From Arenicola marina (lineage: Eukaryota > Annelida > Polychaeta > Arenicolidae), in the NCBI GenBank assembly GCA_964019135.1, contig OZ025248.1, positions 43,021,670-43,085,669 on the forward strand: a stretch of DNA of 64,000 bases, given 5' to 3'. The translations under genes were made by a program, and so were the position numbers. The notes beneath the pieces were generated by a model. It had not been told where the DNA came from. It worked only from the letters and a program-made list of their open reading frames with translations, and made no database searches. Shown piece by piece: positions 14,185 through 64,000 of the stretch. Numbering within the stretch: position 1 is the stretch's first letter; every line of letters begins with the position of its first letter.

Positions 14185-14838
14185 AATACTCTGCTGATAC
14201 CATGGTATAATTCTGGTGGTACAATGACAATGATGCACCACCAATGATATATCATGATGTACCATAGTGTAACCTGGTATAACATAATATACTATAGTAT
14301 ATCGCGCCCTTCCAAGATCATACCATGGTATATCTTAACTTCATCATGATATTACCATGGTAATTAAACCATAGTAATTAAACTTAAAAGGTAAAAAAAA
14401 AAGATATATTAATATGATATATCTTGGTATTCCGTGATATATCATAATATACCATGGTATATACCTTGGTATATCACAAGATGCTATGGCATATCACACC
14501 CTTCTACACCCAATCACATGGCATTGCAAGCACTTCTTTGCAGTGATATATGCTCATTATGCACTGTGGTACTTGCACATACAATAGTACCATGGTACAT
14601 CCAGATCGCACCGAGGTACTTGTACATACAACAGTACCATGGTACATCCAGATCGCATCGTGGTATACCATGGTACTTAACGCATATTATGAAATACCAT
14701 GGTACTCAACCTACGGACGTCGGTGTACCATGGTACATATAACTGCAGTACCATGGTATAGAACGATGTTCCATGGAGTACCATGGTATACCACAGTAAA
14801 CTATGGTACGTGCCATGGTATACCATGGTAAAATTTCA
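14185..14838. repeat. Right subterminal TACCATGGTA palindrome cluster
   Basis: This mirrors the left end of the TIR element. Palindromic ACCATGGT words recur densely, especially from 14580 to 14830, ending in the right inverted repeat. A small direct duplication (GTACCATGGTACATCCAGAT) occurs at about 14587 and 14635. The cluster could fold into many alternative hairpins. Confidence 0.75.
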
Positions 14839-28279: not shown

Positions 28280-29118
28280 GTAACAGCGGTGGATGTAGGT
28301 TTGACCGTTGTGTTATTATTTCGCACTTTCCACCATACATTGTTCGTGTTAGTTCTGGTACTCGCACCCTATCTCGCTAGTCCGTGTCTTGTTCTACTGT
28401 CTAATGATTCACCTTCTGTTCGTGTCGTGGTGACGGGACCTATTAACTGTGTATTTGTCTCACCCTGTGTTAGTGTTCAGAGTGTGAAAGGGTATCGAGC
28501 GTAGATTCCCTGGAAGCCGCCAATGGGCGATTGTTGTTTCAGTGTCGTCGCCAACTTGTACCCAACACCATCATCATTCCACAAATCTTCCGCGAAGTAA
28601 TTAATAACAGTTTATACAATATTTTATAAAATAATACTATCAGTATTTCTGTATATATGGTACATATTTACGCGATAAACTGATTGGATTTTGCATTTCT
28701 GTTAAGTTATATTATATTCCATAACATTACAGTAACCATGAGCCAGTACTAGCTGCGCTGAGTTGTTATAGTAGTCACTTATTGTATGGGATACAAGTAC
28801 ACGTGGAGGTGTGGGTCTCATTGGGAACATAGCTAACATATAGACTACACGCACATCGGTTTGTTAGCTGACATATACCGTGTGGCGTTACACAGAGCAG
28901 TGATGCGCATTGAACTAGTCGGTCCCCTGTACTGGGCTGTTTGGTATGTAGACTCCCACCAACTAGTGAGACTGTGTCAGCAAGCTGCGGGATGCCACAG
29001 ATAGTCCGTATATATGTACGATAGTTATCCATATCGTGGATTAAAGCCCACGAAATGAATTAGGCGTGATTAATACGTGAGCTATGTTAAAACAATGGTC
29101 CACCCTGTTTATCTGCAG
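28280..29118 (+). other. Intron
   Basis: An 839-bp AT-rich intron between the repeat exon and the FN3 exon. It starts GTAACA and ends CACCCTGTTTATCTGCAG. No other feature is recognised. Confidence 0.55.
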
Positions 29119-29397
29119 CTCTGGAGGCACCGACTAATGTCACAATTGGGAATATCACAACGACAACCATCACAGGGACATGGAAGGATCCAGACGGGAA
29201 CTTTGATAAAATCAGGGTTGATTGTAACTCAACAAATGGTGGCGTACCTAACACAACGTCTGTGATTCCGGGGATCATGAGCGCGACTTGCGAAGGCCTC
29301 ACCCCGGGGTCCCACTACAACGTGACCGTCAGCAGTGTGTTCAATGACCAAGACGCGGCACCCCCAGCATCGGCTGATCCAGTACCCGCTGTCACGG
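29119..29397 (+). CDS. Fibronectin type III domain exon
   Basis: A complete 279-bp exon (93 codons, phase 1 at both ends) between TTTATCTGCAG and GTAAGT. The peptide starts (A)LEAPTNVTIGNITTTTITG and shows FN3 landmarks: the APTNVT opening strand, Trp22 in TWKDPDG, the NFDKIRV strand, Leu61 in LTPG and Tyr67 in HYNVTVSSVF. A Cys pair (C36 and C58) and five N-glycosylation sequons (N7, N12, N37, N45, N68) point to an extracellular domain. One exon per FN3 domain with phase 1 borders is the usual arrangement of modular receptors and adhesion proteins. Similar Cys-bearing FN3 domains occur in receptor tyrosine phosphatases; that assignment is inference. Its 3' boundary is the founder of the 35-bp array that follows. 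Confidence 0.88.
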
Positions 29398-32300
29398 GTA
29401 AGTAACAGGGCTGTTGGTGGACGCTGTCACGTGTAAGTAACAGGGCTGTTGGTGGACGCTGTCACGTGTAAGTAACAGGGCTGTTCGTGGACGCTGTCAC
29501 GTGTAAGTAGCAGGGCTGGTGGTGGACGCTGTCAGGGGTAAGTAACAGGGCTGGTGGTGGACGCTGTCACTGGTAAGTAACAGGGCTGTTGGTGGACGCT
29601 GTCACGGGTAAGTAACAGGGATGGTGCTGGACGCTGTCACGGGTAAGTAACATGGCTGGTGGTAGACGCTGTCCCTGGTAAGCAACAGGGATGGTGGTGG
29701 ACGCTGTAACGGGTAAGTAACAGGGCTGGTGGTGGACGATGTCCCGGGTAAGTAACAGGGATGGTGGTGGACGCTGTCACGGGTAAGTAACATGGCTGGT
29801 GGTGGACGATGTCACGGGTAAGTAACAGAACTGGTGATGGACGCTGTCACGGGTAAGTAATAAGGCTGGTGGTGGACGCTGTCACGTGTAAGGAACAGAG
29901 CTGTTGATAGACGCTGTCACGGGTTAGTAACAAGGCTGATGGTGGACGCTGTCACGGGTAAGTAACAAGGCTGATGGTGGAGGCTGTCACGTGTAAGTTA
30001 CAGGGCTGATGGTGGACGCTGTCACGGGTAAGTAACATGGCTGGTGGTGGACGATGTCACGGGTAAGTAACAGGGAAGGTGGTGGACGCTGTCACGTGTA
30101 AGTAACTGGGATGGTGATGGACGCTGTGACGGGTAAGTAACACGGCTGGTGGTAGACGCTGTCACTGGTGAGGAACAGGGCTGGTGGTGGACGCTGTCAC
30201 TGGTAAGTAACAGGGCTGGTGGTGGACGCTGTCACGTGTAAGGAACAGAGCTGTTGATAGATGCTGTCACGGGTTAGTAACAAGGCTGATGGTGGACGCT
30301 GTCACGGGTAAGTAACAAGGCTGATGGTGGAGGCTGTCACGTGTAAGTTACAGGGCTGATGGTGGATGCTGTCACGGGTAAGTAACAGGGCTGGTGATGG
30401 ACGCTGTGACGTGTAAGTAACAGAGCTGGTGATGGACGCTGTCACGGGTAAGTAACAAGGCTGATTGTGGACGCTGTCACGTGTAAGTAACAGAGCTGGT
30501 GATGGACGCAGTCACGGGTAAATAGCAAGGCTGATGGTGGACGCTGTCACTGGTAAGTAACAAGGCTGGTGGTGGACGCTGTCACGTGTAAGTAACAGAG
30601 CTGGCGATTGACGCTGTCACGGGTAAGTAACAAGGCTGATGGTGGACGCTGCCACGTGTAAGGAACAGAGCTGTTGATGGACGCTGTCACGGGTTAGTAA
30701 CAAGGTTGATGGTGGACGCTGTCACGGGTAAGTAACAGGGCTGGTGGTGGACGCTGTCACGGATAAGTAACAGGGATGGTGGTGGACGCTGTCACGCGTA
30801 AGTAACATGGCTGGTGGTGGACGATGTCACGGGTAAGTAACAGGGAAGGCGGTGGACGCTGTCACGTGTAAGTAACAGGGATGGTGGTGGACGCTGTCAC
30901 GGGTAAGTAACACGGCTGGTGGTAGACGCTGTCACTGGTGAGGAACAGGGCTGGTGGTGGACGCTGTCACGGGTAAGTAACAGGTCTGGTGGTGGACGCT
31001 GTCACTGGTAAGCAACAGGGCTGTTGGTGGACGCTGTCACGGGTAAGTAACAGGGATGGTGGCGGACGCTGTCACTGGTAAGTAACAGGGTTGGTGGTGC
31101 ACGCTGTCACTGGTAAGTAACAGGGATGGTGGTGGACGCTGTCACTGGTAAGTAACAGGGCTGGTGGTGGACGCTGTCACGGGTAAGTAACAGGGCTGGT
31201 GGTGGACGCTGTCACTGGTAAGTAACAGGGCTTTTGGTGGACGCTGTCACGGGTAAGTAACAGGGAAGGTGGTGGACGCGGTCACGGGTAAGTAACATGG
31301 CTGGTGGTGGACGATGTCACGGGTAATTAACAGGGATGGTGGTGGACGCTGTCACGTGTAAGTAACGGGGATGGTGGTGGACGCTGTCACTGGTAAGTAA
31401 CAGGGATGGTGGTGGACGCTGTCACTGGTAAGTAACAGGGCTGGTGGTGGACGCTGTCGCGGGTAAGTAACAGGGCTGGTGGTGGACGCTGTCACTGGTA
31501 AGCAACAGGGCTGGTGGTGGACGCTGCAACGGGTAAGTAACAGGGATGGTGGTGGACGCTGTCACGGGTAAGTAACAGGGCTGGTGGTGGACGATGTCAC
31601 GGGTAATTAACAGGGATGGTGGTGGACGCGGTCACAGGTAAGTAACAGGGCTGATGGTGGACGCTGTCACGGGTAAGTAACATGGCTGGTGGTGGACGAT
31701 GTCACGGGTAAGTAACAGGGATGGTGTTGGACGCTGTCACGTGTAAGTAACAGGGATGGTGGTGGACGCTGTCACTGGTAAGTAACAGGGATGGTGGTGG
31801 AAGCTGTCACTGGTAAGTAACAGGGCTGGTGGTGGACGCTGTCACGGGTAAGTAACAGGGCTGGTGGTGGGCGCTGTCACGGGTAAGTAACAGGGATGGT
31901 GGTAGACGCTGTCACGGGTAAGTAACATGGCTGGTGGTGGACGATGTCACGGGTAAGTAACAGGGATGGTGGTGGACGCTGTCACGGGTAAGTAACAGGG
32001 CTGGTGATAGACGCTGTCAGTGGTAAGTAATATGGCTGGTGGTGGACGATGTCACGGGTAAGTAACAGGGCTGATGGTGGACGCTGTCACGGGTAGGTAA
32101 CAAAGTTGATGGTGGACGCTGTCACTGGTAAGCAACAAGGCTGGTGGTGGACGCTGTCACGTGTAAGTAACAGAACTGGTGATGGACGCTGTCACGGGTA
32201 AGTAATAAGGCTGGTGGTGGACGCTGTCACGTGTAAGGAACAGAGCTGTTGATAGACGCTGTCACGGGTAGGTAACAAGGCTGATGGTGGACGCTGTCAC

Positions 32301-35300
32301 GGGTAAGTAACAAGGCTGATGGTGGAGGCTGTCACGTGTAAGTTACAGGGCTGATGGTGGACGCTGTCACGGGTAAGTAACAGGGCTGGTGGTGGACGCT
32401 GTCACGGGTAAGTAACAGGGCTGGTGGTGGACGCTGTCACGGATAAGTAACAGGGATGGTGGTGGACGCTGTCACGCGTAAGTAACATGGCTGGTGGTGG
32501 ACGATGTCACGGGTAAGTAACAGGGAAGGTGGTGGACGCTGTCACGTGTAAGTAACAGGGATGGTGGTGGACGCTGTCACGGGTAAGTAACACGGCTGGT
32601 GGTAGACGCTGTCACTGGTGAGGAACAGGGCTGGTGGTGGACGCTGTCACGGGTAAGTAACAGGTCTGGTGGTGGACGCTGTCACTGGTAAGCAACAGGG
32701 CTGTTGGTGGACGCTGTCACGGGTAAGTAACAGGGATGGTGGCGGACGCTGTCACTGGTAAGTAACAGGGTTGGTGGTGCACGCTGTCACTGGTAAGTAA
32801 CAGGGATGGTGGTGGACGCTGTCACTGGTAAGTAACAGGGCTGGTGGTGGACGCTGTCACGGGTAAGTAACAGGGCTGGTGGTGGACGCTGTCACTGGTA
32901 AGTAACAGGGCTGTTGGTGGACGCTGTCACGGGTAAGTAACAGGGAAGGTGGTGGACGCGGTCACGGGTAAGTAACATGGCTGGTGGTGGACGATGTCAC
33001 GGGTAATTAACAGGGATGGTGGTGGACGCTGTCACGTGTAAGTAACGGGGATGGTGGTGGACGCTGTCACTGGTAAGTAACAGGGATGGTGGTGGACGCT
33101 GTCACTGGTAAGTAACAGGGCTGGTGGTGGACGCTGTCGCGGGTAAGTAACAGGGCTGGTGGTGGACGCTGTCACTGGTAAGCAACAGGGCTGGTGGTGG
33201 ACGCTGCAACGGGTAAGTAACAGGGATGGTGGTGGACGCTGTCACGGGTAAGTAACAGGGCTGGTGGTGGACGATGTCACGGGTAATTAACAGGGATGGT
33301 GGTGGACGCGGTCACAGGTAAGTAACAGGGCTGATGGTGGACGCTGTCACGGGTAAGTAACATGGCTGGTGGTGGACGATGTCACGGGTAAGTAACAGGG
33401 ATGGTGTTGGACGCTGTCACGTGTAAGTAACAGGGATGGTGGTGGACGCTGTCACTGGTAAGTAACAGGGATGGTGGTGGAAGCTGTCACTGGTAAGTAA
33501 CAGGGCTGGTGGTGGACGCTGTCACGGGTAAGTAACAGGGCTGGTGGTGGGCGCTGTCACGGGTAAGTAACAGGGATGGTGGTAGACGCTGTCACGGGTA
33601 AGTAACATGGCTGGTGGTGGACGATGTCACGGGTAAGTAACAGGGATGGTGGTGGACGCTGTCACGGGTAAGTAACAGGGCTGGTGATAGACGCTGTCAG
33701 TGGTAAGTAATATGGCTGGTGGTGGACGATGTCACGGGTAAGTGACAGGGCTGATGGTGGACGCTGTCACGGGTAGGTAACAAAGTTGATGGTGGACGCT
33801 GTCACTGGTAAGCAACAAGGCTGGTGGTGGACGCTGTCACGTGTAAGTAACAGAACTGGTGATGGACGCTGTCACGGGTAAGTAATAAGGCTGGTGGTGG
33901 ACGCTGTCACGTGTAAGGAACAGAGCTGTTGATAGACGCTGTCACGGGTAGGTAACAAGGCTGATGGTGGACGCTGTCACGGGTAAGTAACAAGGCTGAT
34001 GGTGGAGGCTGTCACGTGTAAGTTACAGGGCTGATGGTGGACGCTGTCACGGGTAAGTAACAGGGCTGGTGGTGGACGCTGTGACGTGTAAGTAACAGAG
34101 CTGGTGATGGACGCTGTCACGGGAAAGTAACAAGGCTGATGGTGGACGCTGTCACGTATAAGTAACAGAGCTGGTGCTGGACGCAGTCACGGGTAAGTAG
34201 CAAGGCTGATGGTGGACGCTGTCACTGGTAAGTAACAAGGCTGGTGGTGGACGCTGTCACGTGTAAGTAACAGAGCTGGTGATTGACGCTGTCACGGGTA
34301 AGTAACAAGGCTGATGGTGGACGCTGTCACGTGTAAGGAACAGAGCTGTTGATGGACGCCGTCACGGGTTAGTAACAAGGCTGATGATGGACGCTGTCAC
34401 TGGTAAGTAACAGGGCTGGTGGTGGACGCTGTCACGGATTAGTAACAGGGATGGTGGTGGACGCTGTCACGCGTAAGTAACATGGCTGGTGGTGGACGAT
34501 GTCACGGGTAAGTAACAGGGAAGGTGGTGGACGCTGTCACGTGTAAGTAACAGGGATGGTGGTGGACGCTGTCACGGGTAAGTAACACGGCTGGTGGTAG
34601 ACGCTGTCACTGGTGAGTAACAGGGCTGGTGGTGGACGCTGTCACGGGTAAGTAACAGGGCTGGTGGTGGACGCTGTCACTGGTAAGTAACAGGGCTGTT
34701 GGTGGACGCTGTCACGGGTATGTAACAGGGATGATGGCGGACGCTGTCACTGGTAAGTAACAGGGTTGGTGGTGGACGCTGTCACTGGCAAGTAACAGGG
34801 ATGGTGGTGGACGCTGTCACTGGTAAGTAACAGGGCTGGTGGTGGACGCTGTCACGGGTAAGTAACAGGGCTGGTGGTTGACGCTGTCACTGGTAAGTAA
34901 CAGGGCTGTTGGTGGACGCTGTCACGGGTAAGTAACAGGGATGGTGGTGGACGATGTCACGGGTAATTAACAGGGATGGTGGTGGACGCGGTCACAGGTA
35001 AGTAACAGGGCTGATGGTGGACGCTGTCACGGGTAAGTAACATGGCTGGTGGTGAACGATGTCACGGGTAAGTAACAGGGATGGTGGTAGACGCTGTCAC
35101 GTGTAAGTAACAGGGATGGTGGTGGACGCTGTCACTGGTAAGTAACAGGGATGGTGGTGGACGCTGTCGCTGGTAAGTAACAGGGCTGGTGGTGGACGCT
35201 GTCACGGGTAAGTAACAGGGTTGGTGGTGGACGCTGTAACGGGTAAGTAACAGGGATGGTGGTGGACGCTGTCACGGGTAAGTAACATGGCTGGTGGTGG

Positions 35301-38300
35301 ACGATGCCACGGGTAAGTAACAGGGATGGTGGTGGACGCTGTCACAGGTAAGTAACAGGGCTGATGATGGACGCTGTCACGGGTAAGTAACAAGGCTGAT
35401 GGTGGACGCTGTCACGTGTAAGTCACAGGGCTGATGGTGGACGATGTCACGGGTAAGTAACAAGGCTGGTGGTGGACGCTGTCACGTGTAAGTAACAGAG
35501 CTGGTGATGGACGCTGTCACGGGTAAGTAACAAGGTTGATGATGGATGTTGTCACATGTAAGTAACAGAGCTGGTGATGGACGCTGTCACGGGTAAGTAA
35601 ACGGGCTGGTGGTGGACGCTGTCACGGGTAAGTAACAGGGCTGGTGGTGGACGCTGTCACTGGTAAGTAACAGGGCTGTTGGTGGACGCTGTCACGGGTA
35701 AGCAACAGGGATGGTGGTAGACGCTGTCACGGGTAAGTAACATGGCTGGTGGTGGACGATGTCACGGGTAAGTAACAGGGATGGTGGTGGACGCTGTCAC
35801 GGGTAAGTAACAGAGCTGGCGATAGACGCTGTCAGTGGTAAGTAATATGGCTGGAGGTGGACGATGTCACGGGTAAGTAACAGGGATGGTGGTGGACGCT
35901 GTCACTGGTAAGTAACAGGGCTGGTGGTGGACGCTGTCACGGGTAAGTAACAGGGCTGGTGGTGGACGCTGTCACGGGTAAGTAACAGGGCTGTTGGTGG
36001 ACGCTGTCACGGGTAAGTAACAGGGAAGGTGGTGGACGCGGTCACGGGTAAGTAACATGGCTGGTGGTGGACGATGTCACGGGTAATTAACCGGGATGGT
36101 GGTGGACGCTGTCACGTGTAAGTAACGGGGATGGTGGTGGACGCTGTCACTGGTAAGTAACAGGGATGGTGGTGGACGCTGTCACTGGTAAGTAACAGGG
36201 CTGGTGGTGGACGCTGTCGCGGGTAAGTAACAGGGCTGGTGGTGGACGCTGTCACTGGTAAGCAACAGGGCTGGTGGTGGACGCTGTCACTGGTAAGTAA
36301 CAGGGCTGTTGGTGGACGCTGTCACGGGTATGTAACAGGGATGGTGGCGGACGCTGTCACTGGTAAGTAACAGGGTTGGTGGTGGACGCTGTCACTGGCA
36401 AGTAACAGGGATGGTGGTGGACGCTGTCACTGGTAAGTAACAGGGCTGGTGGTGGACGCTGTCACGGGTAAGTAACAGGGCTGGTGGTTGACGCTGTCAC
36501 TGGTAAGTAACAGGGCTGTTGGTGGACGCTGTCACGGGTAAGTAACAGGGATGGTGGTGGACGATGTCACGGGTAATTAACAGGGATGGTGGTGGACGCG
36601 GTCACAGGTAAGTAACAGGGCTGATGGTGGACGCTGTCACGGGTAAGTAACATGGCTGGTGGTGAACGATGTCACGGGTAAGTAACAGGGATGGTGGTAG
36701 ACGCTGTCACGTGTAGGTAAGAGGGATGGTGGTGGACGCTGTCACTGGTAAGTAACAGGGATGGTGGTGGACGCTGTCGCTGGTAAGTAACAGGGCTGGT
36801 GGTGGACGCTGTCACGGGTAAGTAAAGGAGTTGGTGGTGGACGCTGTAACGGGTAAGTAACAGGGATGGTGGTGGACGCTGTCACGGGTAAGTAACATGG
36901 CTGGTGGTGGACGATGTCACGGGTAAGTAACAGGGATGGTGGTGGACGCTGTCACGGGTAGGTAACAGGGCTGGTGGTGGACGATGTCACGGGTAATTAA
37001 CAGGGATGGTGGTGGACGCGGTCACAGGTAAGTAACAGGGCTGATGGTGGACGCTGTCACGGGTAAGTAACATGGCTGGTGGTGGACGATGTCACGGGTA
37101 AGTAACAGGGATGGTGTTGGACGCTGTCACGTGTAAGTAACCACGATGGTGGTGGACGCTGTCACTGGTAAGTAACAGGGATGGTGGTGGAAGCTGTCAC
37201 TGGTAAGTAACAGGGCTGGTGGTGGACGCTGTAACGGGTAAGTAACAGGGCTGGTGGTGGACGCTGTCACGGGTAAGTAACAGGGATGGTGGTAGACGCT
37301 GTCACGGGTAAGTAACATGGCTGGTGGTGGACGATGTCACGGGTAAGTAACAGGGATGGTGGTGGACGCTGTCACGGGTAAGTAACCGGGCTGGTGATAG
37401 ACGCTGTCAGTGGTAAGTAATATGGCTGGTGGTGGACGATGTCACGGGTAAGTAACAGGGATGGTGGTGGACGCTGTCACAGGTAAGTAACAGGGCTGAT
37501 GGTGGACGCTGTCACGGGTAGGTAACAAAGCTGATGGTGGACGCTGTCACTGGTAAGTAACAAGGCTGGTGGTGGACGCTGTCACGTGTAAGTAACAGAA
37601 CTGGTGCTGGACGCTGTCACGGGTGAGTAATAAGGCTGGTGGTGGACGCTGTCACGTGTAAGGAACAGAGCTGTTGATAGACGCTGTCACGGGTAGGTAA
37701 CAAGTCTGATGGTGGACGCTGTCACGGGTAAGTAACAAGGCTGATGGTGGAGGCTGTCACGTGTAAGTTACAGGGCTGATGGTGGACGCTGTCACGGGTA
37801 AGTAACAGGGCTGGTGGTGGACGCTGTGACGTGTAAGTAACAGAGCTGGTGATGGACGCTGTCACGGGAAAGTAACAAGGCTGATGGTGGACGCTGTCAC
37901 GTGTAAGTAACAGAGCTGGTGCTGGACGCAGTCACGGGTAAGTAGCAAGGCTGATGGTGGACGCTGTCACTGGTAAGTAACAAGGCTGGTGGTGGACGCT
38001 GTCACGTGTAAGTAACAGAGCTGGTGATTGACGCTGTCACGGGTAAGTAACAAGGCTGATGGTGGACGCTGTCATGTGTAAGGAACAGAGCTGTTGATGG
38101 ACGCCGTCACGGGTTAGTAACAAGGCTGATGATGGACGCTGTCACTGGTAAGTGACAGGGCTGGTGGTGGACGCTGTCACGGATTAGTATCAGGGATGGT
38201 GGTGGACGCTGTCACGCGTAAGTAACATGGCTGGTGGTGGACGATGTCACGGGTAAGTAACAGGGAAGGTGGTGGGCGCTGTCACGGATTAGTATCAGGG

Positions 38301-41300
38301 ATGGTGGTGGACGCTGTCACTGGTAAGTAACAGGGCTGGTGGTGGACGCTGTCACGGGTAAGTAACAGGGCTGGTGGTGGACGCTGTCACTGGTAAGTAA
38401 CAGGGCTGTTGGTGGACGCTGTCACGGGTATGTAATAGGGATGGTGGCGGACGCTGTCACTGGTAAGTAACAGGGTTGGTGGTGGACGCTGTCACTGGCA
38501 AGTAACAGGGATGGTGGTGGACGCTGTCACTGGTAAGTAACAGGGCTGGTGGTGGACGCTGTCACGGGTAAGTAACAGGGCTGGTGGTTGACGCTGTCAC
38601 TGGTAAGTAACAGGGCTGTTGGTGGACGCTGTCACGGGTAAGTAACAGGGATGGTGGTGGACGATGTCACGGGTAATTAACAGGGATGGTGGTGGACGCG
38701 GTCACAGGTAAGTAACAGGGCTGATGGTGGACGCTGTCACGGGTAAGTAACATGGCTGGTGGTGAACGATGTCACGGGTAAGTAACAGGGATGGTGGTAG
38801 ACGCTGTCACGTGTAAGTAACAGGGATGGTGGTGGACGCTGTCACTGGTAAGTAACAGGGATGGTGGTGGACGCTGTCGCTGGTAAGTAACAGGGCTGGA
38901 GGTGGACGATGTCACGGGTAAGTAACAGGGATGGTGGTGGACGCTATCACAGGTAAGTAACAGGGCTGATGGTGGACGCTGTCACGGGTAAGTAACACGG
39001 CTGGTGGTGGACGATGTCACGGGTAAGTAACAGGGATGGTGGTGGACGCTGTCACAGGTAAGTAACAGGGCTGATGATGGACGCTGTCACGGGTAAGTAA
39101 CAAGGCTGATGGTGGACGCTGTCACGTGTAAGTCACAGGGCTGATGGTGGACGATGTCACGGGTAAGTAACAAGGCTGGTGGTGGACGCTCTCACGTGTA
39201 AGTAACAGAGCTGGTGATGGACGCTGTCACGGGTAAGTAACAAGGTTGATGATGGATGTTGTCACGTGTAAGTAACAGAGCTGGTGATGGACGCTGTCAC
39301 GGGTAAGTAAACGGGCTGGTGGTGGACGCTGTCACGGGTAAGTAACAGGGCTGGTGGTGGACGCTGTCACTGGTAAGTAACAGGGCTGTTGGTGGACGCT
39401 GTCACGGGTAAGCAACAGGGATGGTGGTAGACGCTGTCACGGGTAAGTAACATGGCTGGTGGTGGACGATGTCACGGGTAAGTAACAGGGATGGTGGTGG
39501 ACGCTGTCACGGGTAAGTAACAGAGCTGGCGATAGACGCTGTCAGTGGTAAGTAATATGGCTGGAGGTGGACGATGTCACGGGTAAGTAACAGGGATGGT
39601 GGTGGACGCTGTCACAGGTAAGTAACAGGGCTGATGGTGGACGCTGTCACGGGTAAGTAACAAAGCTGATGGTGGACGCTGTCACTGGTAAGTAACAAGG
39701 CTGGTGGTGGACGCTGTCACGTGTAAGTAACAAAACTGGTGATGGACGCTGTCACGGGTAAGTAATAAGGCTGGTGGTGGACGCTGTCACGTGTAAGGAA
39801 CAGAGCTGTTGATAGACGCTGTCACGGGTTAGTAACAAGGCTGATGGTGGACGCTGTCACGGGTAGGTAACAAGGCTGATGGTGGAGGCTGTCACGTGTA
39901 AGTTACAGGGCTGATGGTGGACGCTGTCACGGGTAAGTAACAGGGCTGGTGGTGGACGCTGTGACGTGTAAGTAACAGAGCTGGTGATGGACGCTGTCAC
40001 GGGTAAGTAACAAGGCTGATGGTGGACGCTGTCACGTGTAAGTAACAGAGCTGGTGATGGACGCAGTCACGGGTAAGTAGGAAGGCTGATGGTGGACGCT
40101 GTCACTGGTAAGTAACAAGGCTGGTGGTGGACCCTGTCACGTGTAAGTAACAGAGCTGGTGATTGACGCTGTCACGGGTAAGTAACAAGGCTGATGGTGG
40201 ACGCTGTCACGTGTAAGGAACAGAGCTGTTGATGGACGCTGTCACGGGTTAGTAACAAGGCTGATGATGGACGCTGTCACTGGTAAGTAACAGGGCTGGT
40301 GGTGGACGCTGTCACGGATAAGTAACAGGGATGGTGGTGGACGCTGTCACGCGTAAGTAACATGGCTGGTGGTGGACGATGTCACGGGTAAGTAACAGGG
40401 AAGGTGGTGGACGCTGTCACGTGTAAGTAACAGGGATGGTGGTGGACGCTGTCACGGGTAAGTAACACGGCTGTTGGTAGACGCTGTCACTGGTGAGTAA
40501 CAGGGCTGGCGGTGGACGCTGTCACTGGTAAGTAACACAGCTGGTGGTGGACGCTGTCACGGGTAAGTAACAGGGCTGGTGGTGGACGCTGTCACTGGTA
40601 AGTAACAGGGCTGTTGGTGGACGCTGTCACGGGTAAGTAACAGGGATGGTGGCGGACGCTGTCACTGGTAAGTAACAGATTTGGTGGTGGACGCTGTCAC
40701 TGGTAAGTAACAGGGATGGTGGTGGACGCTGTCACTGGTAAGTAACAGGGCTCGTGGTGGACGCTGTCACGGGTAAGTAACAGGGCTGGTGGTGGACGCT
40801 GTCACTGGTAAGTAACAGGGATGGTGGTGGACGCTGTCGCTGGTAAGTAACAGGGCTGGTGGTGGACGCTGTCACGGGTAAGTAAAGGGGTTGGTGGTGG
40901 ACGCTGTCACAGGTAAGTAACAGGGCTGATGATGGACGCTGTCACGGGTAAGTAACAAGGCTGATGGTGGACGCTGTCACGTGTAAATCACAGGGCTGAT
41001 GGTGGACGATGTCACGGGTAAGTAACAAGGCTGGTGGTGGACGCTGTCACGTGTAAGTAACAGAGCTGGTGATGGACGCTGTCACGGGTAAGTAATAAGG
41101 TTGATGATGGATGTTGTCACGTGTAAGTAACAGAGCTGGTGATGGACGCTGTCACGGGTAAGTAAACGGGCTGGTGGTGGACGCTGTCACGGGTAAGTAA
41201 CAGGGCTGGTGGTGGACGCTGTCACTGGTAAGTAACAGGGCTGTTGGTGGACGCTGTCACGGGTAAGCAACAGGGATGGTGGTAGACGCTGTCACGGGTA

Positions 41301-53300: not shown

Positions 53301-56300
53301 ACATGGCTGGTGGTGGACGATGTCACGGGTAAGTAACAGGGATGGTGGTGGACGCTGTCACAGGTAAGTAACAGGGCTGATGATGGACGCTGTCACGATT
53401 AAGTAACAAGGCTGATGGTGGACGCTGTCACGTGTAAGTCACAGGGCTGATGGTGGACGATGTCACGGGTAAGTAACAAGGCTGGTGGTGGACGCTGTCA
53501 CGTGTAAGTAACAGAGCTGGTGATGGACGCTGTCACGGGTAAGTAACAAGGTTGATGATGGATGTTGTCACGTGTAAGTAACAGAGCTGGTGATGGACGC
53601 TGTCACGGGTAAGTAAACGGGCTGGTGGTGGACGCTGTCACGGGTAAGTAACAGGGCTGGTGGTGGACGCTGTCACTGGTAGGTAACAGGGCTGTTGGTG
53701 GACGCTGTCACGGGTAAGCAACAGGGATGGTGGTAGACGCTGTCACGGGTAAGTAACATGGCTGGTGGTGGACGATGTCACGGGTAAGTAACAGGGATGG
53801 TTGTGGACGCTGTCACGGGTAAGTAACAGGGCTGGTGATAGATGCTGTCAGTGGTAAGTAATATGGCTGGTGGTGGACGATGTCACGGGTAAGTAACATG
53901 GATGGTGGTGGACGCTGTCACAGGTAAGTAACAGGGCTGATGGTGGACGCTGTCACGGGTAAGTAACAAAGCTGATAGTGGACGCTGTCACTGGTAAGTA
54001 ACAAGGCTGGTGGTGGACGCTGTCACGTGTAAGTAACAAAACTGGTGATGGACGCTGTCACGGGTAAGTAATAAGGCTGGTGGTGGACGCTGTCACGTGT
54101 AAGGAACAGAACTGTTGATAGACGCTGTCACGGGTTAGTAACAAGGCTGATGGTGGACGCTGTCACGGGTAGGTAACAAGGCTGATGGTGGAGGCTGTCA
54201 CGTGTAAGTTACAGGGCTGATGGTGGACGCTGTCACGGGTAAGTAACAGGGCTGGTGGTGGACGCTGTGACGTGTAAGTAACAGAGCTGGTGATGGACGC
54301 TGTCACGGGTATGTAACAAGGCTGATGGCGGACGCTGTCACGTGTAAGTAACAGAGCTGGTGATGGACGCAGTTACGGGTAAGTAGCAAGGCTGGTGGTG
54401 GACCCTGTCACGTGTAAGTAACAGAGCTGGTGATTGACGCTGTCACGGGTAAGTAACAAGGCTGATGGTGGACGCTGTCACGTGTAAGGAACAGAGCTGT
54501 TGATGGACGCTGTCACGGGTTAGTAACAAGGCTGATGATGGACGCTGTCACTGGTAAGTAACAGGGCTGGTGGTGGACGCTGTCACGGATAAGTAACAGG
54601 GATGGTGGTGGACGCTGTCACGCGTAAGTAACATGGCTGGTGGTGGACGATGTCACGGGTAAGTAACAGGGAAGGTGGTGGACGCTGTCACGTGTAAGTA
54701 ACAGGGATGGTGGTGGACGCTGTCACGGGTAAGTAACACGGCTGTTGGTAGACGCTGTCACTGGTTAGTAACAGGGCTGGTGGTGGACGCTGTCACGGAT
54801 AAGTAACAGGGATGGTGGTGGACAATGTCACTGGCAAGTAACAGGGATGGTGGTGGACGCTGTCACTGGTAAGTAACAGGGCTGGTGGTGGACACTGTCA
54901 CGGGTAAGTAACAGGGCTGGTGGTGGACGCTGTCACTGGTAAGTAACAAGGCTGGTGGTGGACGCTGTCACGTGTAAGGAACAGAGCTGTTGATAGACGC
55001 TGTCACGGGTTAGTAACAAGGCTGGTGGTTGACGCTGTCACGGGTAAGTAACAAGGCTGATTGTGGAGGCTGTCACGTGTAAGTTACAGGGCTGATGGTG
55101 GACGCTGTCACGGGTAAGTAACAGGGCTGGCGGTGGACGCTGTGACGTGTAAGTAACAGAGCTGGTGATGAACGCTGTCACGGGTAAGTAACAAGGCTGA
55201 TGGTGGACGCTGTCACGTGTAAGTAGCAGAGCTGGTGATGGACGCAGTCACGGGTAAGTAGCAAGGCTGATGGTGGACGCTGTCACTGGTAAGTAACAAG
55301 GCTGGTGGTGTACGCTGTCACGTGTAAGTAACATAGCTCTTGATTGACGCTGTCACGGGTAAGTAACAAGGCTGATGGTGGAGGCTGTCACGTGTAAGGA
55401 ACAGAGCTGTTGATGGACGCTGTCACGGGTTAGTAACAAGGCTGATGGTGGACGCTGTCACTGGTAAGTAACAGGGCTGGTGGTGGACGCTGTCACGGAT
55501 AAGTAACAGGGATGGTGGTGGACAATGTCACTGGTAAGTAACAGGGACGGTGGTGGACGCTGTCACTGGTAAGTAACAGGGCTGGTGGTGGACGCTGTCA
55601 CGGGTAAGTAACAGGGCTGGTGGTGGACGCTGTCACTGGTAAGCAACAGGGCTGGTGGTGGACGCTGTAACGGGTAAGTAACAGGGATAGTGGTGGACGC
55701 TGTCACGGGTAAGTAACATGGCTGGTGGTGGACGATGTCACGGGTAATTAACAGGGATGGTGGTGGACGCGGTCACAGGTAAGTAACAGGGCTGATGGTG
55801 GACGCTGTCACGGGTAAGTAACAAGGCTGATGGTGGACGCTGTCACGTGTAAGTCACAGGGCTGATGGTGGACGCTGTCACGGGTAAGTAACAAGGCTGG
55901 TGGTGGACGCTGTCACGTGTAAGTAACAGAGCTGGTGATGGACGCTGTCACGGGTAAGTAACAAGGTTGATGGTGGATGTTGTCACGTGTAAGTAACAGA
56001 GCTGGTGATGGACGCTGTCACGGGTAAGTAACAAGACTGATGGTGGACGCTGTCACTGGTAAATAAACGGGCTGGTGGTGGACGCTGTCACTGGTAAGTA
56101 ACAGGGCTGGTGGTGGACGATGTCACGGGTAAGTAACAGGGATGGTGGTGGACGCTGTCACTGGTAAGTAACAGGGCTGGTGGTGGACGCTGTCACGGAT
56201 AAGTAACAGGGCTGGTGGTGGACGCTGTCACGGGTAAGCAACAGGGCTGGTGGTGGACGCTGTAACGGGTAAGTAACAGGGATAGTGGTGAACGCTGTCA

Positions 56301-57655
56301 CGGGTAAGTAACATGGCTGGTGGTGGACGATGTCACGGGTAATTAACAGGGATGGTGGTGGACGCGGTCACAGGTAAGTAACAGGGCTGATGGTGGACGC
56401 TGTCACGTGTAAGTAACAGAGCTGGTGATTGACGCTGTCACGGGTAAGTAACAAGGCTGATGGTGGACGCTGTCACCTGTAAGGAACAGAGCTGTTGATG
56501 GACGCTGTCATGGGTTAGTAACAAGGCTGATGGTGGACGCTGTCACTGGTAAGTAACAGGGCTGGTGGTGGACGCTGTCACGGATAAGTAACAGGGATGG
56601 TGGTGGACGCTGTCACGCGTAAGTAACATGGCTGGTGGTAGACACTGTCACGGGTAAGTAACAGGGATGGTGGTGGACGCTGTCACTGGTAAGCAACAGG
56701 GCTGGTGGTGGACGCTGTAACGAGTGAGTAACAGGGATGGTGGTGGACGCTGTCACGGGTAAGTAACATGGCTGGTGGTGGACGATGTCACGGGTAAGTA
56801 ACAGGGATGGTGGTGGACGCTGTCACGGGTAAGTAACAGGGCTGGTGATAGACGCTGTCAGTGGTAAGCAATATGGCTGGTGGTGGACGATGTCACGGGT
56901 AAGTAACAACGCTGATGGTGGACGCTGTCACTGGTAAGTAACAAGGCTGGTGGTGGACGCTGTCACGTGTAGGTAACAGAACTGGTGAAGGACGCTGTCA
57001 CGGGTAAGTAATAAGGCTGGTGGTGGACGCTGTCACGTGTAAGGAACAGAGCTGTTGATAGACGCTGTCACGGGTTAGTAACAAGGCTGGTGGTGGACGC
57101 TGTCACGGGTAAGTAACAGGGATGGTGGTGGACGCTGTCACGGATAAGTAACAGGGATGGTGGTGGACGCGGTCACGCGTAAGTAACATGACTGGTGGTG
57201 GACGATGTCACGGGTAAGTAACAGGGAATGTGGTGGACGCTGTCACGTGTAAGTAACAGGGATGGTGGTGGACGCTGTCACGGGTAAGTAACACGGCTGG
57301 TGGTAGACGCTGTTACTGGTAAGTAACAGGGCTGGTGGTGGACGCTGTCGCGGATAAGTAACAGGGATGGTGGTGGACGCTGTCACGGGTAAGTAACATG
57401 GGTGGTGGTGGACGATGTCACGGGTAAGTAACAGGGAAGGTGGTGGACGCTGTCTCGTGTAAGTAACAGGGATGGTGGTAGACGCTGTCACGGATAAGTA
57501 ACATGGCTGGTGGTGGACGATGTCACGGGTAAGTAACAGGGCTGATGGTGGACGCTGTCACGGGTAAGTAACAGAGCTGGTGGTGGACGCTGTCTCGGGT
57601 AAGTGGCAAGGCTGATTGTGGACGCTGTCACGGGTAAGTAACAGGGCAGGGGTTA
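29386..57655 (+). repeat. 35-bp megasatellite made of splice-donor units, main block
   Basis: The unit is ACGCTGTCACGG then GTAAGTAACAGGGCTGGTGG plus TGG, period 35 bp, about 805 copies. The first unit is the FN3 exon boundary itself, CCGCTGTCACGG followed by GTAAGTAACAGGG, so the authentic donor is copy 1. Most copies keep GTAAGT. Changes cluster just before it (CGG, TGG, CGT or CAG) and in the spacer (GGGCTGG, GGGATGG, AGAGCTGG, AAGGCTGA). Near-identical higher-order blocks recur at offsets of 1190, 1400, 1680, 1960, 2100, 2341 and 2380 bp. It lies inside an intron, so it should be transcribed. Minus-strand open frames of 60-100 codons are periodicity effects. Confidence 0.95.
29398..29403 (+). 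promoter_or_regulatory. Authentic FN3-exon splice donor (array copy 1)
   Basis: CACGG followed by GTAAGT, a near-perfect complement to the 5' end of U1 snRNA. The frame continues Gly-Lys-stop past the boundary (GGT AAG TAA), so failing to splice here, or splicing at any later array copy, adds an in-frame stop within three codons. Confidence 0.7.
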
Positions 57656-57659
57656 GGCA

Positions 57660-57906
57660 CTGTGTTACTGACCCGATCCGGTGTGTTACCTTGTTGTATA
57701 GCGGTGCTGAATACCCGATGGATTACCTTGTTGTATACTGTTGCTGACGACCCGATGGGTTACCTTGTTGTATAGTGTTACTGACGATCCTGTGGGTTAC
57801 CTTGTTGTATAGTGTTACTGACGATCCTGTGGGTTAACTTGTTGTATAATGTTACTGACGACCCGGTGGGTTACCTTGTTGTATAATGTTACTGACGACC
57901 CTGTAG
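57660..57906. repeat. 37-bp satellite island inside the 35-bp array
   Basis: About six to seven units built on GACCCGATGGGTTACCTTGT and TGTATAGTGTTACT, with period 37 bp. It interrupts the 35-bp array abruptly on both sides. The same unit reappears at 63541. Confidence 0.9.
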
Positions 57907-60900
57907 GTGGTGGACGCTGTCACGGGTAAGTAACAAGGCTGATGGTGGAGGCTGTCACGTGTAAGTTACAGGGCTGATGGTGGACGCTGTCACGGGTAAG
58001 TAACAGGGCTGGTGGTGGACGCTGTCACGTGTAAGTAACAGAGCTGGTGATGGAAGCTGTCACGGGTTAGTAACAAGGCTGATGGTGGACGCTGTCACCT
58101 GTAAGGAACAGAGCTGTTGATGGACGCTGTCATGGGTTAGTAACAAGGCTGATGGTGGACGCTGTCACTGGTAAGTACCAAAGCCGGTGGTGGACGCTGT
58201 CACGTGTAAGTAACAGAGCTGGTGATTGACGCTGTCACGGGTAAGTAACAAGGCTGATGGTGGACGCTGTCACCTGTAAGGAACAGAGCTGTTGATCGAC
58301 GCTGTCATGGGTTAGTAACAAGGCTGATGGTGGACGCTGTCACTGGTAAGTAACAGGGCTGGTGGTGGACGCTGTCACGGATAAGTAACAGGGATGGTGG
58401 TGGACGCTGTCACGCGTAAGTAACATGGCTGGTGGTAGACACTGTCACGGGTAAGTAACAGGGATGGTGGTGGACGCTGTCACTGGTAAGCAACAGGGCT
58501 GGTGGTGGACGCTGTAACGGGTAAGTAACAGGGATGGTGGTGGACGCTGTCACGGGTAAGTAACATGGCTGGTGGTGGACGATGTCACGGGTAATTAACA
58601 GGTATGGTGGTGGACGCGGTCACAGGTAAGTAACAGGGCTGATGGTGGACGCTGTCACGGGTAAGTAACAAGGCTGATGGTGAACGCTGTCACGTGTAAG
58701 TCACAGGGCTGATGGTGGACGCTGTCACGGGTAAGTAACAAGGCTGGTGGTGGACGCTGTCACGTGTAAGTAACAGAGCTGGTGATGGACGCTGTCACGG
58801 GTAAGTAACAAGGTTGATGGTGGATGTTGTCACGTGTAAGTAACAGAGCTGGTGATGGACGCTGTCACGGGTAAGTAACAAGGCTGATGGTGGATGCTGT
58901 CACTGGTAAATAAACGGGCTGGTGATGGACGCTGTCACGGTTAAGTAACAGGGCTGGTGGTGGACGCTGTCACTGGTAAGTAACAGGGCTGGTGGTGGAC
59001 GATGTCACGGGTACGTCACAGGGATGGTGTGGACGCTGTCACGGGTAGATAACATGGCTGATGGTGGACGATGTCACGGGTAAGTAACAGGGATGGTGGT
59101 GGACGCTGTCACGGGTAAGTAACAGGGCTGGTGATAGACGCTGTCAGTGGTAAGTAATATGGCTGGTGGTGGACGATGTCACGGGTAAGTAACAGGGATG
59201 GTGGTGGACGCTGTCACAGGTAAGTAACAGGGCTGATGGTGGACGCTGTCACGGGTAAGTAACAAAGCTGATGGTGGACGCTGTCACTGGTAAGTAACAA
59301 GGCTGGTGGTGGACGCTGTCACGTGTAAGTAACAAGACTGGTGATGGACGCTGTCAAGGGTTAGTAACAAGGCTGGTGGTGGACGCTGTCACGGGTAAGT
59401 AACAAGGCTGATTGTGGAGGCTGTCACGTGTAAGTTACAGGGCTGATGGTGGACGCTGTCACGGGTAAGTAACAGGGCTGGCGGTGGACGCTGTGACGTG
59501 TAAGTAACAGAGCTGGTGATGAACGCTGTCACGGGTAAGTAACAAGGCTGATGGTGGACGCTGTCACGTGTAAGTAACAGAGCTGGTGATGGACGCAGTC
59601 ACGGGTAAGTAGCAAGGCTGATGGTGGACGCTGTCACTGGTAAGTAACAAGGCTGGTGGTGTACGCTGTCACGTGTAGGTTACAGAGCTCTTGATTGACG
59701 CTGTCACGGGTAAGTAACAAGGCTGATGGTGGAGGCTTTCACGTGTAAGGAACAGAGCTGTTGATGGACGCTGTCACGGGTTAGTAACAAGGCTGATGTT
59801 GGACGCTGTCACTGGTAAGTAACAGGGCTGGTGGTGGACGCTGTCACGGATAAGTAACAGGGATGGTGGTGGACAATGTCACTGGTAAAAAACAGGGATG
59901 GTGGTGGACGCTGTCACTGGTAAGTAACAGGGCTGATGGTGGACGCTGTCACGGGTAAGTAACAAGGCTGATGGTGGACGCTGTCACGTGTAAGTCACAG
60001 GGCTGATGGTGGACGCTGTCACGGGTAAGTAACAAGGCTGGTGGTGGACGCTGTCACGTGTAAGTAACAGAGCTGGTGATGGACGCTGTCACTGGTAAGT
60101 AACAAGGTTGATGGTGGATGTTGTCACGTGTAAGTAACAGAGCTGGTGATGGACGCTGTCACGGGTAGGTAGCAAGGCTGATGGTGGACGCTGTCACTGG
60201 TAAATAAACGGGCTGGTGGTGGACGTTGTCACGGTTAAGTAACAGGGCTGGTGGTGGACGCTGTCACTGGTAAGTAACAGGGCTGGTGGTGGACGATGTC
60301 ACGGGTAAGTAACAGGGATGGTGGTGGACGCTGTCACGGGTAAGTAACAGGGCTGGTGATAGACGCTGTCCGTGGTAAGTAATATGGCTGGTGGTGGACG
60401 ATGTCACGGGTAAGTAACAGGGATGGTGGTGGACGCTGTCACAGGTAAGTAACAGGGCTGATGGTGGACGCTGTCACGGGTAAGTAACAAAGCTGATGGT
60501 GGACGCTGTCACTGGTAAGTAACAAGGCTGGTGGTGGACGCTGTCACGTGTAAGTAACAGAACTGGTGATGGACGCTGTCACGGGTAAGCAATAAGGCTG
60601 GTGGTGGACGCTGTCACTGGTAAGCAACAGGGCTGGTGGTGGACGCTGTAACGGGTAAGTACCAGGGATGGTGGTGGACGCTGTCACGGGTAAGTAACAT
60701 GGCTGGTGGTGGACGATGTCACGGGTAAGTAACATGGCTGGTGGTGGACGATGTCACGGGTAAGTAACAGGGCTGTTGGTGGACGCTGTCACGGGTAAGT
60801 AACAGGGATGGTGGTGGACGCTGTCACGGGTAAGTAACATGGCTGGTGGTGGACGATGTCACGGGTAATTAACAGGGATGGTGGTGGACGCTGTCACGTG

Positions 60901-63535
60901 TAAGTAACAGGGATGGTGGTGGACGCTGTCACTGGTAAGTAACAGGGATGGTGGTGGACGCTGTCACTGGTAAGTAACAGGGCTGGTGGTGGACGCTGTC
61001 ACGGGTAAGTAACAGGGCTTGTGGTGGACGCTGTCACTGGTAAGCAACAGGGCTGGTGGTGGACGCTGTAACGGGTAAGTAACAGGGATGGTGGTGGACG
61101 CTGTCACGGGTAAGTAACATGGCTGGTGGTGGACGCTGTCACGGGTAATTAACAGGTATGGTGGTGGACGCGGTCACAGGTAAGTAACAGGGCTGATGGT
61201 GGACGCTGTCACGGGTAAGTAACAAGGCTGATGGTGGACGCTGTCACGTGTAAGTCACAGGGCTTATGGTGGACGCTGTCACGGGTAAGTAACAAGACTG
61301 GTGGTGGACGCTTTCACGTGTAAGTAACAGAGCTGGTGATGGACGCTGTCACGGGTAAGTAACAAGGTTGATGGTGGATGTTGTCACGTGTAAGTAACAG
61401 AGCTGGTGATGGACGCAGTCACGGGTAAGTAACAAGGCTGATGGTGGACGCTGTCACTGGTAAATAAACGGGCTGGTGATGGACGCTGTCACAGGTAATG
61501 AACTGGGCTGATGGTGGATGCGGTCCCGGGTAAGTAACAGGGCTGATGGTGGACGCTGTCACGGGTAAGTAACAGGCCTGATGGGGGATGCTGTCACGGG
61601 CAAAAGTAACAGGGCTGGTGGTGGATGCTGTCACGGGTAATTAACTAGGCTGGTGGAGGACTCTGTCACGGGTAAGTAACAGAACTTGTGGTGGAAGCTG
61701 TCACCTGTAACTAGCAGAGCTGGTGGTGGACGCTTCCACGATTAAGTAACATGGCTGGTGGTGGATGTTGTCACGAGTAAGTAACAGGTCTGGTGGTGGA
61801 CGCTGTCACGTTTAAGTAAGTGGGCTGGTGGTGGACACTGTAACGGGTAAGTAACAGGGCTGATGATGGTTTCTGTCACGGGTAAGTAACAGGGTTGGTG
61901 CTATATGCTGCCCCGGGTAAGTAACAGGGCTGGTGTTGGACACTGTCACAGGTAATTAACACTGCTCATGGTGGACGCGGTCACGGGTTATAACAGGGCT
62001 GTTGGTGGACGTTGTCACATGTAAGTTACAGAGCTGGTGGTGGACGCCGTCGCGAGTAAGTAACAGGGCTGATGGTGGATGCTGTCAAGGGTAAGTAACA
62101 GGGCTGGTGGTTGACGCAGTCACGGATAAATAACAGGGCTTATGGTAGATGCTGTCACGGGTAAGTACCAGGGCTGGTGGTTTATGCTGTCTCGGTTAAT
62201 TAACAGGGCTGGTGGCGGACGCTGTCACGGATAAGCAACAGGACTGTTTGGTGGACACTGTCACGGGTAAGTAACAGAGCGGGTGGTGGAAGCCGTCACG
62301 GGTAAGTAAAATGGATGATTGTTGGACGCTCTCATGCGAAACTATCAGAGCTGGTTTTGGTCGCTGTCAAGGGTAAGTAACATGGATGTTTCGGGGACGC
62401 TGTCACGTGTAACTAACAGAGCTGATGGTGGTCGCTGTCAAGGGTAAGTAAGATGGATGGTTAGTGCACGCTGTCATGTGTAAGTAACAGAGCTGGTGGT
62501 GGTCGCTGTCAAGAGTAGGTAACATGGATGTTTGGTAGACGTTGTCATGTGTAAGTAACAGAGCTGGTGGTGGTCGCTGTCACGGGTAATCAACATGGAT
62601 GTTTGGTGGACGCTGTCACTTGTAAGTAACAGGGCTGGTGGGGGACGCGGTCACGTGTAACTAACAGAGCTGGTGGTGGAGGCTATCACGATTAAGTAAC
62701 AGGGCTGATGGTGGATGCTGTCACCGGTATTTAACAGGGCTGGTGGGGGACGCTGTCACGGGTGAATAACAGTGTTGATGGTGGATGCTGTCACGTGTAA
62801 GTAACAGGGTTGGTGGTACACACTGTCACGGGTAAATAACAGGCCTGTGGTGGACGCTGTCACGGGTAAGTAATAGGGCTGATGGTTGATGCTGTCACAG
62901 GTAAGTATCAGGGCTGGCGGCGCATGCTGTCCCGGTTAAGTAACAGGGCTGGTGGTGGACGCTGTCACGGGTAAGTAACAGGGCTGGTGGTGGACACTGT
63001 TACGTGTAAGTAACAGGGCTGGTAGTGGACGCCGTCACGGGTAAGTAGCAGGGCTGGTGGTACACACTGTTACGTGTAAGTAACAGGGCTGGTAGTGGAC
63101 GCCGTCACGTGTAAGTAACAGGGCTGGTGGTACACACTGTTACGTGTAAGTAACAGGGCTGGTAGTGGACGCGGTCACGGGTAAGTAACAGGGCTGGTGG
63201 TACACACTGTCGCGGGTAAATAACAGGGTTGGTAGTGGACGCCGTCACGGGTAAGTAACAGGGCTGGTGGTACACACTGTCACGAGTAAATAACAGGCCT
63301 GTGGTGGACGCTGGTGGACGGATGGTGGTAGACACTGTCACGGGTAAGTAACAGGGCTGGTGATGGAATCTGTCACGGGTAAGTAAAAGGGCTGTGGTGG
63401 ACGCTGTCACGTGTAAGTAACATAAATTCTAACAGGGCCGGTGGTAGACACAGCCACGGGTAAATAACAGGGCTGGTGGTGGCTGCTGTCACGGGTAAGT
63501 AACCGGGCTGGCGGTGGACGCGGTCACGGATAAGT
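57907..63535 (+). repeat. 35-bp splice-donor array, second block with decayed right part
   Basis: The 35-bp unit continues for about 160 copies. To about 61480 it is like the main block. From there to 63535 copies diverge strongly, with length changes, lost GTAAGT and variants such as TACACACTGTTACGTGTAAG. This is the aged edge of the array. Confidence 0.93.
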
Positions 63536-63540
63536 ATGTC

Positions 63541-63700
63541 AAGGTAACGATGGGTTACGCTGTTGTATAGCGTTACTGACGACCCGATGGGTTAACTTGT
63601 TGCATAGGGTTTCTAGCGCCCCGATGGGTTATCTTGTATAGTGTTATTGACGACCCGATGGGTTACCTTATTACCTTATTACCTTATTACCTTATTACAG
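63541..63700. repeat. Second 37-bp island ending in a 9-bp microsatellite
   Basis: Four diverged 37-bp units (GACCCGATGGGTTAACTTGT and similar) end in a short TTACCTTAT tandem run (about 63662-63697). The unit matches the island at 57660. Confidence 0.85.
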
Positions 63701-64000
63701 TGGACACTGTTACGTGTAAGTAACAGGGCTGGTAGTGGACGCCGTCACGGGTAAGTAGCAGGGCTGGTGGTACACACTGTTACGTGTAAGTAACAGGGCT
63801 GGTAGTGGACGCCGTCACGTGTAAGTAACAGGGCTGGTGGTACACACTGCTACGTGTAAGTAACAGGGCTGGTAGTGGACGCGGTCACGGGTAAGTAACA
63901 GGGCTGGTGGTACACACTGTCGCGGGTAAATAACAGGGTTGGTAGTGGACGCCGTCACGGGTAAGTAACGGGGCTGGTGGTACACACTGTCACGGGTAAA
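63701..64000 (+). repeat. 35-bp array resumes, copy of 62991-63290
   Basis: About 300 bp of the 35-bp array, nearly identical to the sequence 710 bp to the left (TACGTGTAAG blocks at 63001 and 63711), with about three differences. The array runs off the window. Confidence 0.9.

What the first reader, a model, noticed from the sequence alone, without database searches (positions are those of the whole stretch)
29386..64000. A megasatellite whose repeat unit is a 5' splice site, about 950-980 copies
The 35-bp unit starts from the exon/intron boundary of the FN3 exon: GCTGTCACGG then GTAAGTAACAGGG is present both at the real junction (29388 on) and in every unit. An intronic array of this size in which each unit is a strong U1-type donor, in register with the authentic donor, is not something I know as a described system. 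The pre-mRNA would carry a dense U1 snRNP binding platform. Possible effects, all inference: titrating U1, protecting a giant intron from premature polyadenylation (U1 telescripting), or confusing donor choice for this gene.
Basis: partly seen in the sequence, partly recalled or inferred. Interest (0 to 1): 0.93.

Follow-up and report, generated by a model that had tools for sequence, protein, structure and literature searches.

The report
Giant repeat grown from a splice-site
A 35-base stretch that spans the end of a protein-coding exon and the start of the next intron has been copied about 970 times in a row, which looks like an extreme case of a splice-site-spanning repeat already described in lancelets rather than a new splicing device.

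Summary
A 35-bp tandem array (969 copies at 29387-63313; resuming to the window end) starts inside the last 11 bp of a fibronectin type III exon (29119-29397, 279 bp, phase 1-1) and carries that exon's donor CGG|GTAAGT in register. GTAAGT is intact in 763 of 983 scorable units and 592 score at least as high as the real donor, so 'every unit' is overstated. The novelty claim fails: tandem repeats of intron/exon boundaries are described in amphioxus as 'mirages' and reportedly do not disturb splicing. This array has that anatomy at far higher copy number. A neutral reading fits best: the founder unit contained the donor and turnover copied it. Recent changes hit donor bases as often as the rest of the unit (25 of 117 and 15 of 77; expected 20.1 and 13.2). 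Only 4 polyadenylation hexamers lie in the array (5.9 expected), which weakens telescripting. Use of any later donor would retain an in-frame TAA at 29403. Species, transcription and splicing could not be tested. Most likely the first donor is used by exon definition and the others are passive decoys.

The parts
29099..29118 (+). 3' splice site (pyrimidine-rich stretch and CAG) of the FN3 exon
   Evidence: TCCACCCTGTTTATCTGCAG|CTCTGGAG; read from sequence, no RNA evidence
29119..29397 (+). Fibronectin type III exon, 279 bp, phase 1-1; its last 11 bp (CGCTGTCACGG) are also the first 11 bp of the repeat unit
   Evidence: Pfam fn3 3.4e-12; fibronectin chain 1fnf_A 4e-16 over four domains, best single domain i-Evalue 0.00087; length divisible by 3
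29398..29403 (+). Presumed authentic 5' splice site GTAAGT
   Evidence: score 10.29 of 12.61 on a recalled weight matrix, U1 duplex -13.0 kcal/mol
29403..29405 (+). In-frame TAA that is retained if any later donor is used
   Evidence: computed for the four donors 29433-29538; follows for every later donor, since this codon lies upstream of all of them; the ORF ends here
29387..63313 (+). 35-bp tandem array, 969 copies, units carrying the donor in register
57662..57908 (+). Interruption by a different, 37-bp satellite (6.6 copies)
63314..63536 (+). Rearranged and partial 35-bp units at the distal part
63548..63698 (+). Second island of the 37-bp satellite (63548-63669) plus an 8-bp TTACCTTA run (63663-63698)
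63699..64000 (+). 35-bp array resumes as a 70-bp two-unit repeat and runs off the window

Best explanation
This is a 'mirage'-type minisatellite of extreme size. A 35-bp segment made of 11 bp of FN3 exon and 24 bp of intron, donor included, was tandemly duplicated. It then grew by unequal exchange, slippage and segmental duplication to about 970 copies. The donors are repeated because the founder segment contained the donor, not because an array of donors was selected. In the pre-mRNA the first donor (29398) is most likely used, because exon definition pairs it with the acceptor at 29118 over 279 nt. Downstream copies act as passive decoys, and occasional use of copies 2-7 would give a premature stop and decay of the mRNA. 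Shown: anatomy, register, relative donor strength, stop codon, no detectable constraint on the donor. Inferred: expansion history, splice choice, decay, lack of function.
For: The unit shares 11 exonic bases and the adjoining intron with the junction. The exonic part encodes the end of the FN3 domain: in one of four fibronectin domains of 1fnf_A the alignment runs to query residue 91, '..vpav' against '..IPAV', so exon to repeat is the likelier direction. Differences between recently duplicated blocks fall on the six donor bases in 25 of 117 cases (20.1 expected, p 0.22), and private single-step changes in 15 of 77 (13.2 expected, p 0.55); rate ratios 1.31 (95% CI 0.81-2.06) and 1.17 (0.62-2.08). 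Turnover is visible: 281 distinct units, exact repeats up to 1691 bp, a 70-bp higher-order repeat at the distal end. The window holds many other minisatellites. The described mirages have the same anatomy and reportedly leave splicing intact.
Against: No RNA, orthologue or species identity is available, so the link to amphioxus mirages is by anatomy only. The copy number is far above the examples in the passages read (3 and 6 units in BflGb6; 2 to 7 in PGBD5). The other three 1fnf_A domains align only to query residues 81, 80 and 88, short of the exonic part of the unit, so the direction of descent rests on one alignment. The confidence intervals still allow 19% or 38% fewer changes at donor bases, and the binomial tests treat changes as independent. 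The donor region is the most open part of the unit in predicted RNA folds of the first 4 kb (mean unpaired probability 0.157 for 89 GTAAGT sites against 0.067 for all 6-mers), which would favour U1 binding. From recall, when identical donors compete and all are bound by U1 the intron-proximal one tends to win, so use of the first donor is not automatic.
Confidence: 0.8

Rival explanations
1. The array is a selected U1 snRNP platform that protects a giant intron from premature polyadenylation (telescripting) or sequesters U1.
For: 592 of 983 unit donors, the authentic one included, score at least as high as the authentic one; 879 of 983 have a predicted U1 duplex energy of -7 kcal/mol or lower; donor region relatively unpaired.
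Against: No constraint on donor bases in recent changes. The array has 4 polyadenylation hexamers against 5.9 expected from its composition, and the repeat itself makes up the intron length seen. U1 is thought to number about a million per nucleus (recalled), so one transcript's sites would be a tiny share.
Confidence: 0.05
2. The repeated donors produce regulated or noisy alternative 5' splice sites: copies 2-7 are used part of the time, retaining an in-frame stop that lowers expression, so changes near the start of the array tune the gene.
For: Six further GTAAGT donors within 500 nt of the exon start; the four computed place TAA at 29403 in frame. The globin paper itself notes that repeat units with AG/GT could serve as cryptic splice sites.
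Against: [quoted passage not shown] No RNA data here.
Confidence: 0.1
3. The array came first and the exon end was later moved into it, so the exon borrowed its donor from the repeat.
For: Anatomy alone cannot fix the direction: the first unit is a typical unit, with the next four 91-97% identical to it over 34 bases; three of four fibronectin domain alignments stop before the exonic part of the unit.
Against: The exon has phase 1-1 symmetry and ends where an FN3 module would end; one fibronectin domain aligns into the exonic part of the unit.
Confidence: 0.05

Closest known systems
Amphioxus 'mirages' (Adh3, Canestro et al. 2002, doi 10.1093/nar/gkf386, not held, known only as cited; globins BflGb6 and BflGb9, PMC3087553, passages; TnC as cited and PGBD5, PMC3902484, passages)
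   Same: Minisatellite-like tandem repeats spanning an intron/exon boundary, many but not all units carrying splice signals, next to the true splice site
   Different: About 970 copies over more than 34 kb here, against 2 to 7 in the passages read for globins and PGBD5 (Adh3 copy numbers not seen); species of this window unknown; splicing and polymorphism untested
Intron gain by tandem duplication of AG/GT proto-splice sites (potato RdRp case PMC4974935, listing and abstract start only; model for globins in PMC3087553, passages)
   Same: Tandem duplication of sequence containing splice signals
   Different: No new intron is evident; only the donor side is duplicated in the window, and the intron sits at what looks like an FN3 module boundary
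GC-rich hypervariable minisatellites (recalled, no call)
   Same: G-rich, strand-asymmetric unit with internal variants and higher-order repeats (GC skew 0.34 to 0.44 over 30001-64000)
   Different: The unit contains an exon end and donor; the array is far longer than the usual sizes recalled
U1 telescripting (PMC10404622, abstract and passages)
   Same: Intronic U1 binding could in principle suppress polyadenylation
   Different: No evidence here of function, constraint or excess polyadenylation sites

Membership tests
Amphioxus-type mirage | Tandem repeat unit spans an intron/exon boundary | tested here: met
   11 exonic + 24 intronic bp in the 35-bp unit; the boundary itself is predicted from sequence, not from RNA
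Amphioxus-type mirage | Array directly adjoins the authentic splice site | tested here: met
   array starts at 29387, predicted donor at 29398
Amphioxus-type mirage | Unit length in the reported range (10-72 bp Adh3, 150-160 bp BflGb6, 157 bp BflGb9) | tested here: met
   35 bp; range from PMC3087553
Amphioxus-type mirage | Many but not all units keep splice signals | tested here: met
   GTAAGT in 763 of 983, GT in 931 of 983
Amphioxus-type mirage | Found in a cephalochordate | not testable with these tools
   no genome held for the window; species not identified
Amphioxus-type mirage | Normal mRNA splicing despite repeats; length polymorphism | not testable with these tools
   no RNA or population data
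Selected U1 platform | Donor bases conserved above the rest of the unit | tested here: not met
   25 of 117 and 15 of 77 changes in donor columns; 20.1 and 13.2 expected; mild constraint stays within the confidence intervals
Selected U1 platform | Cryptic polyadenylation sites to suppress | tested here: inconclusive
   4 hexamers in 34.6 kb of array, 5.9 expected from 200 Markov runs; 14 AATAAA and 11 ATTAAA in the 29.4 kb upstream
Intron gain by tandem duplication | A new intron bounded by duplicated splice signals | tested here: inconclusive
   only the donor side is seen repeated within the window; the next exon lies outside

The most novel reading that the evidence does not exclude
The array works as a very dense U1-binding segment of a giant intron. 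Its copy number changes transcript output, either by holding U1 and polymerase on the nascent RNA or by splitting donor choice between the true site and stop-bearing decoys, making it a length-tunable splicing element.
Probability: 0.07. Interest if true: 0.85.

Novelty: new member of a known kind. Interest (0 to 1): 0.42.

Why it matters
It is a natural experiment on donor choice: 591 units with donors scoring at least as high as the true one follow it in a single intron. If the gene is spliced correctly, that shows how strongly exon definition outweighs donor strength and number. It also suggests that boundary-spanning minisatellites can grow to tens of kilobases without evident selection on the donor.

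Tried and rejected
Tried: U1 telescripting (few polyadenylation hexamers), selection on the donor (none seen), chance (Markov controls), coding readthrough of the array (TAA in the first unit), structured RNA families (0 matches in the window at Rfam gathering thresholds). Other tandem arrays were checked for donors: of 12 other consensus units scored, none reaches 10.29 on either strand (best 7.71), so strong donors are not general to repeats here (the 12 were picked from the 64 overlapping rows). Assembly error cannot be excluded; 281 distinct unit forms argue against simple artefactual copying, while exact repeats of up to 1691 bp exist. Relatives: unit pattern in viral contigs 0 matches, shorter unit pattern in genome contigs 0 matches, FN3 protein in viral contigs 7 pattern stretches, none confirmed. 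Those collections hold viral, bacterial and archaeal sequences, so these negatives say little. Literature searches: seen as listings with abstract starts (20 of 193 listed, 20 of 124, 12 of 16; the others in full). I noticed no comparable large donor array in those listings; only open-licence papers are held. The 5' splice-site weight matrix and the 5' end of U1 were written from memory, so scores are relative.

Full report
What is there. One exon was identified beside the array: 29119-29397, 279 bp, preceded by a good-looking acceptor and followed by CGG|GTAAGT. It encodes a fibronectin type III domain (Pfam fn3, E 3.4e-12; fibronectin chain 1fnf_A, E 4e-16 summed over four domains) and is phase 1 at both ends, as recalled for FN3 module exons. 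Ten of the 97 listed ORFs were scanned with Pfam and only this one passed a cut-off, so other exons in the window are not excluded. From 29387 a 35-bp tandem array runs to 63313 (969.1 copies, 85% matches), followed by rearranged units, and resumes from 63699 to the window end. Aligning 29387-64000 to the unit gives 989 rows, of which 974 pass at least 25/35 identity and at most 3 inserted bases, with 281 distinct forms.

Relation to the splice site. The first 11 bases of the unit are the last 11 bases of the exon and the next 24 are intron, so the authentic donor lies inside the first unit and later units carry its counterpart in register. Of 983 rows with a gapless donor window (6 of 989 dropped; some of the 983 lie in the 37-bp satellite), 931 keep GT, 763 keep GTAAGT, and 592, the authentic one included, score at least as high as the true donor (10.29 of 12.61) on a weight matrix written from memory; 399 equal it. 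Predicted U1 duplex energy is -13.0 kcal/mol for the authentic donor and -7 or lower for 879 of 983 units. On the minus strand of the array 5 sites reach 7 and none reaches 8; upstream of the array 1 site on the + strand and 2 on the - strand reach 10.29. In 100 first-order Markov versions of the array GTAAGT averages 30.4 (at most 42), but sites scoring 7 or more average 219 (at most 248) against 672 observed: composition alone makes weaker donor-like sites common, not the exact donor.

Direction of descent. In one of the four fibronectin domains of 1fnf_A the alignment runs into the residues encoded by the exonic part of the unit ('vpav' against 'IPAV', through query residue 91); in the other three it stops at residues 81, 80 and 88. 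The exon end thus looks like an old module boundary and the repeat a copy of it. This is inference from a weak local alignment; no orthologue could be examined.

Is the donor under selection in the array? Between recently duplicated blocks (53 non-overlapping 10-unit windows at 97% identity or more, 530 unit pairs) 25 of 117 differences fall in the six donor columns, against 20.1 expected (p 0.22). Of 77 private single-step changes 15 do, against 13.2 expected (p 0.55) (966 of 989 rows used, the rest dropped for gaps, insertions or low identity). Confidence intervals of the rate ratio are 0.81-2.06 and 0.62-2.08. Constraint on the donor is not seen, though mild constraint cannot be excluded, and the tests treat changes as independent. 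GTAAGT is kept in 65-88% of units per block of 100 along the array, lowest at the distal end.

What it would do to the RNA. The TAA at 29403-29405 is in frame and lies upstream of every later donor, so use of any of them would truncate the protein; this was computed for the four donors 29433-29538. Decay of that mRNA is inferred. Six GTAAGT donors besides the true one lie within 500 nt of the exon start. From recall, exon definition favours exons of a few hundred bases, so only the first few donors should compete; recall also says that among equal, fully bound donors the intron-proximal one can win. In predicted folds of the first 4 kb the donor region is the most open part of the unit, mean unpaired probability 0.157 (89 sites) against 0.067 for all 6-mers; the authentic donor in its exon context is less open, 0.042. 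Polyadenylation hexamers in the array number 4, against 5.9 expected from 200 Markov runs, so telescripting has little to act on within it.

Comparison with what is known. [quoted passage not shown] Many but not all units carry AG/GT signals, they are said not to interfere with regular splicing though cryptic use is considered possible, they show length instability, and they are offered as a route to intron gain (PMC3087553, passages). PGBD5 is a further case and TnC is cited as one (PMC3902484, passages). Canestro et al. 2002 is not held. This array meets each structural feature tested; species, splicing and polymorphism could not be tested. It differs in scale. I therefore file it as a probable new, extreme member of a known kind, working as a passive, donor-bearing minisatellite.

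Limits. No animal genome, RNA or orthologue was available. The array may extend well past the window. Assembly error was not tested beyond the variety of units and the longest exact repeat of 1691 bp.

Noticed in passing
window 1126-28241: About eleven other minisatellites with units of 26-62 bp and up to 58 copies (for example 7245-10223, 59 bp x 50; 20014-21939, 33 bp x 58; 22299-23591, 52 bp x 25): a very minisatellite-rich region.
   Followed up: partly
window 57662-57908 and 63548-63669: A 37-bp satellite (GTGTTACTGACGACCCGGTGGGTTACCTTGTTGTATA-like) appears twice as islands inside the 35-bp array; likeness of the two islands judged by eye.
   Followed up: no
window 29387-64000: The array holds GCTGGTGG, recalled as the E. 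coli Chi octamer, 303 times on the + strand; probably coincidence, but reminiscent of recalled chi-like cores of hypervariable minisatellites.
   Followed up: no
window 26730-28241: Two adjacent 42-bp arrays have long open frames with 14-residue repeats (such as TEATPIDPTVDVQP), broken by stops and a frame change; no Pfam match above cut-off in the two ORFs scanned. Possibly a decayed coding repeat or only a minisatellite.
   Followed up: partly
window 11512-14830: Clusters of short palindromic repeats around TACCATGGTA.
   Followed up: no
window 62980-64000: Distal units form a 70-bp two-unit higher-order repeat, and by eye the stretch after the second 37-bp island resembles the stretch from 62980, suggesting a recent segmental duplication.
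   Followed up: partly
window 30001-64000: Strong strand asymmetry (GC skew 0.34 to 0.44 in 2-kb windows) along the array, so the transcribed RNA is G-rich and R-loops are conceivable.
   Followed up: no
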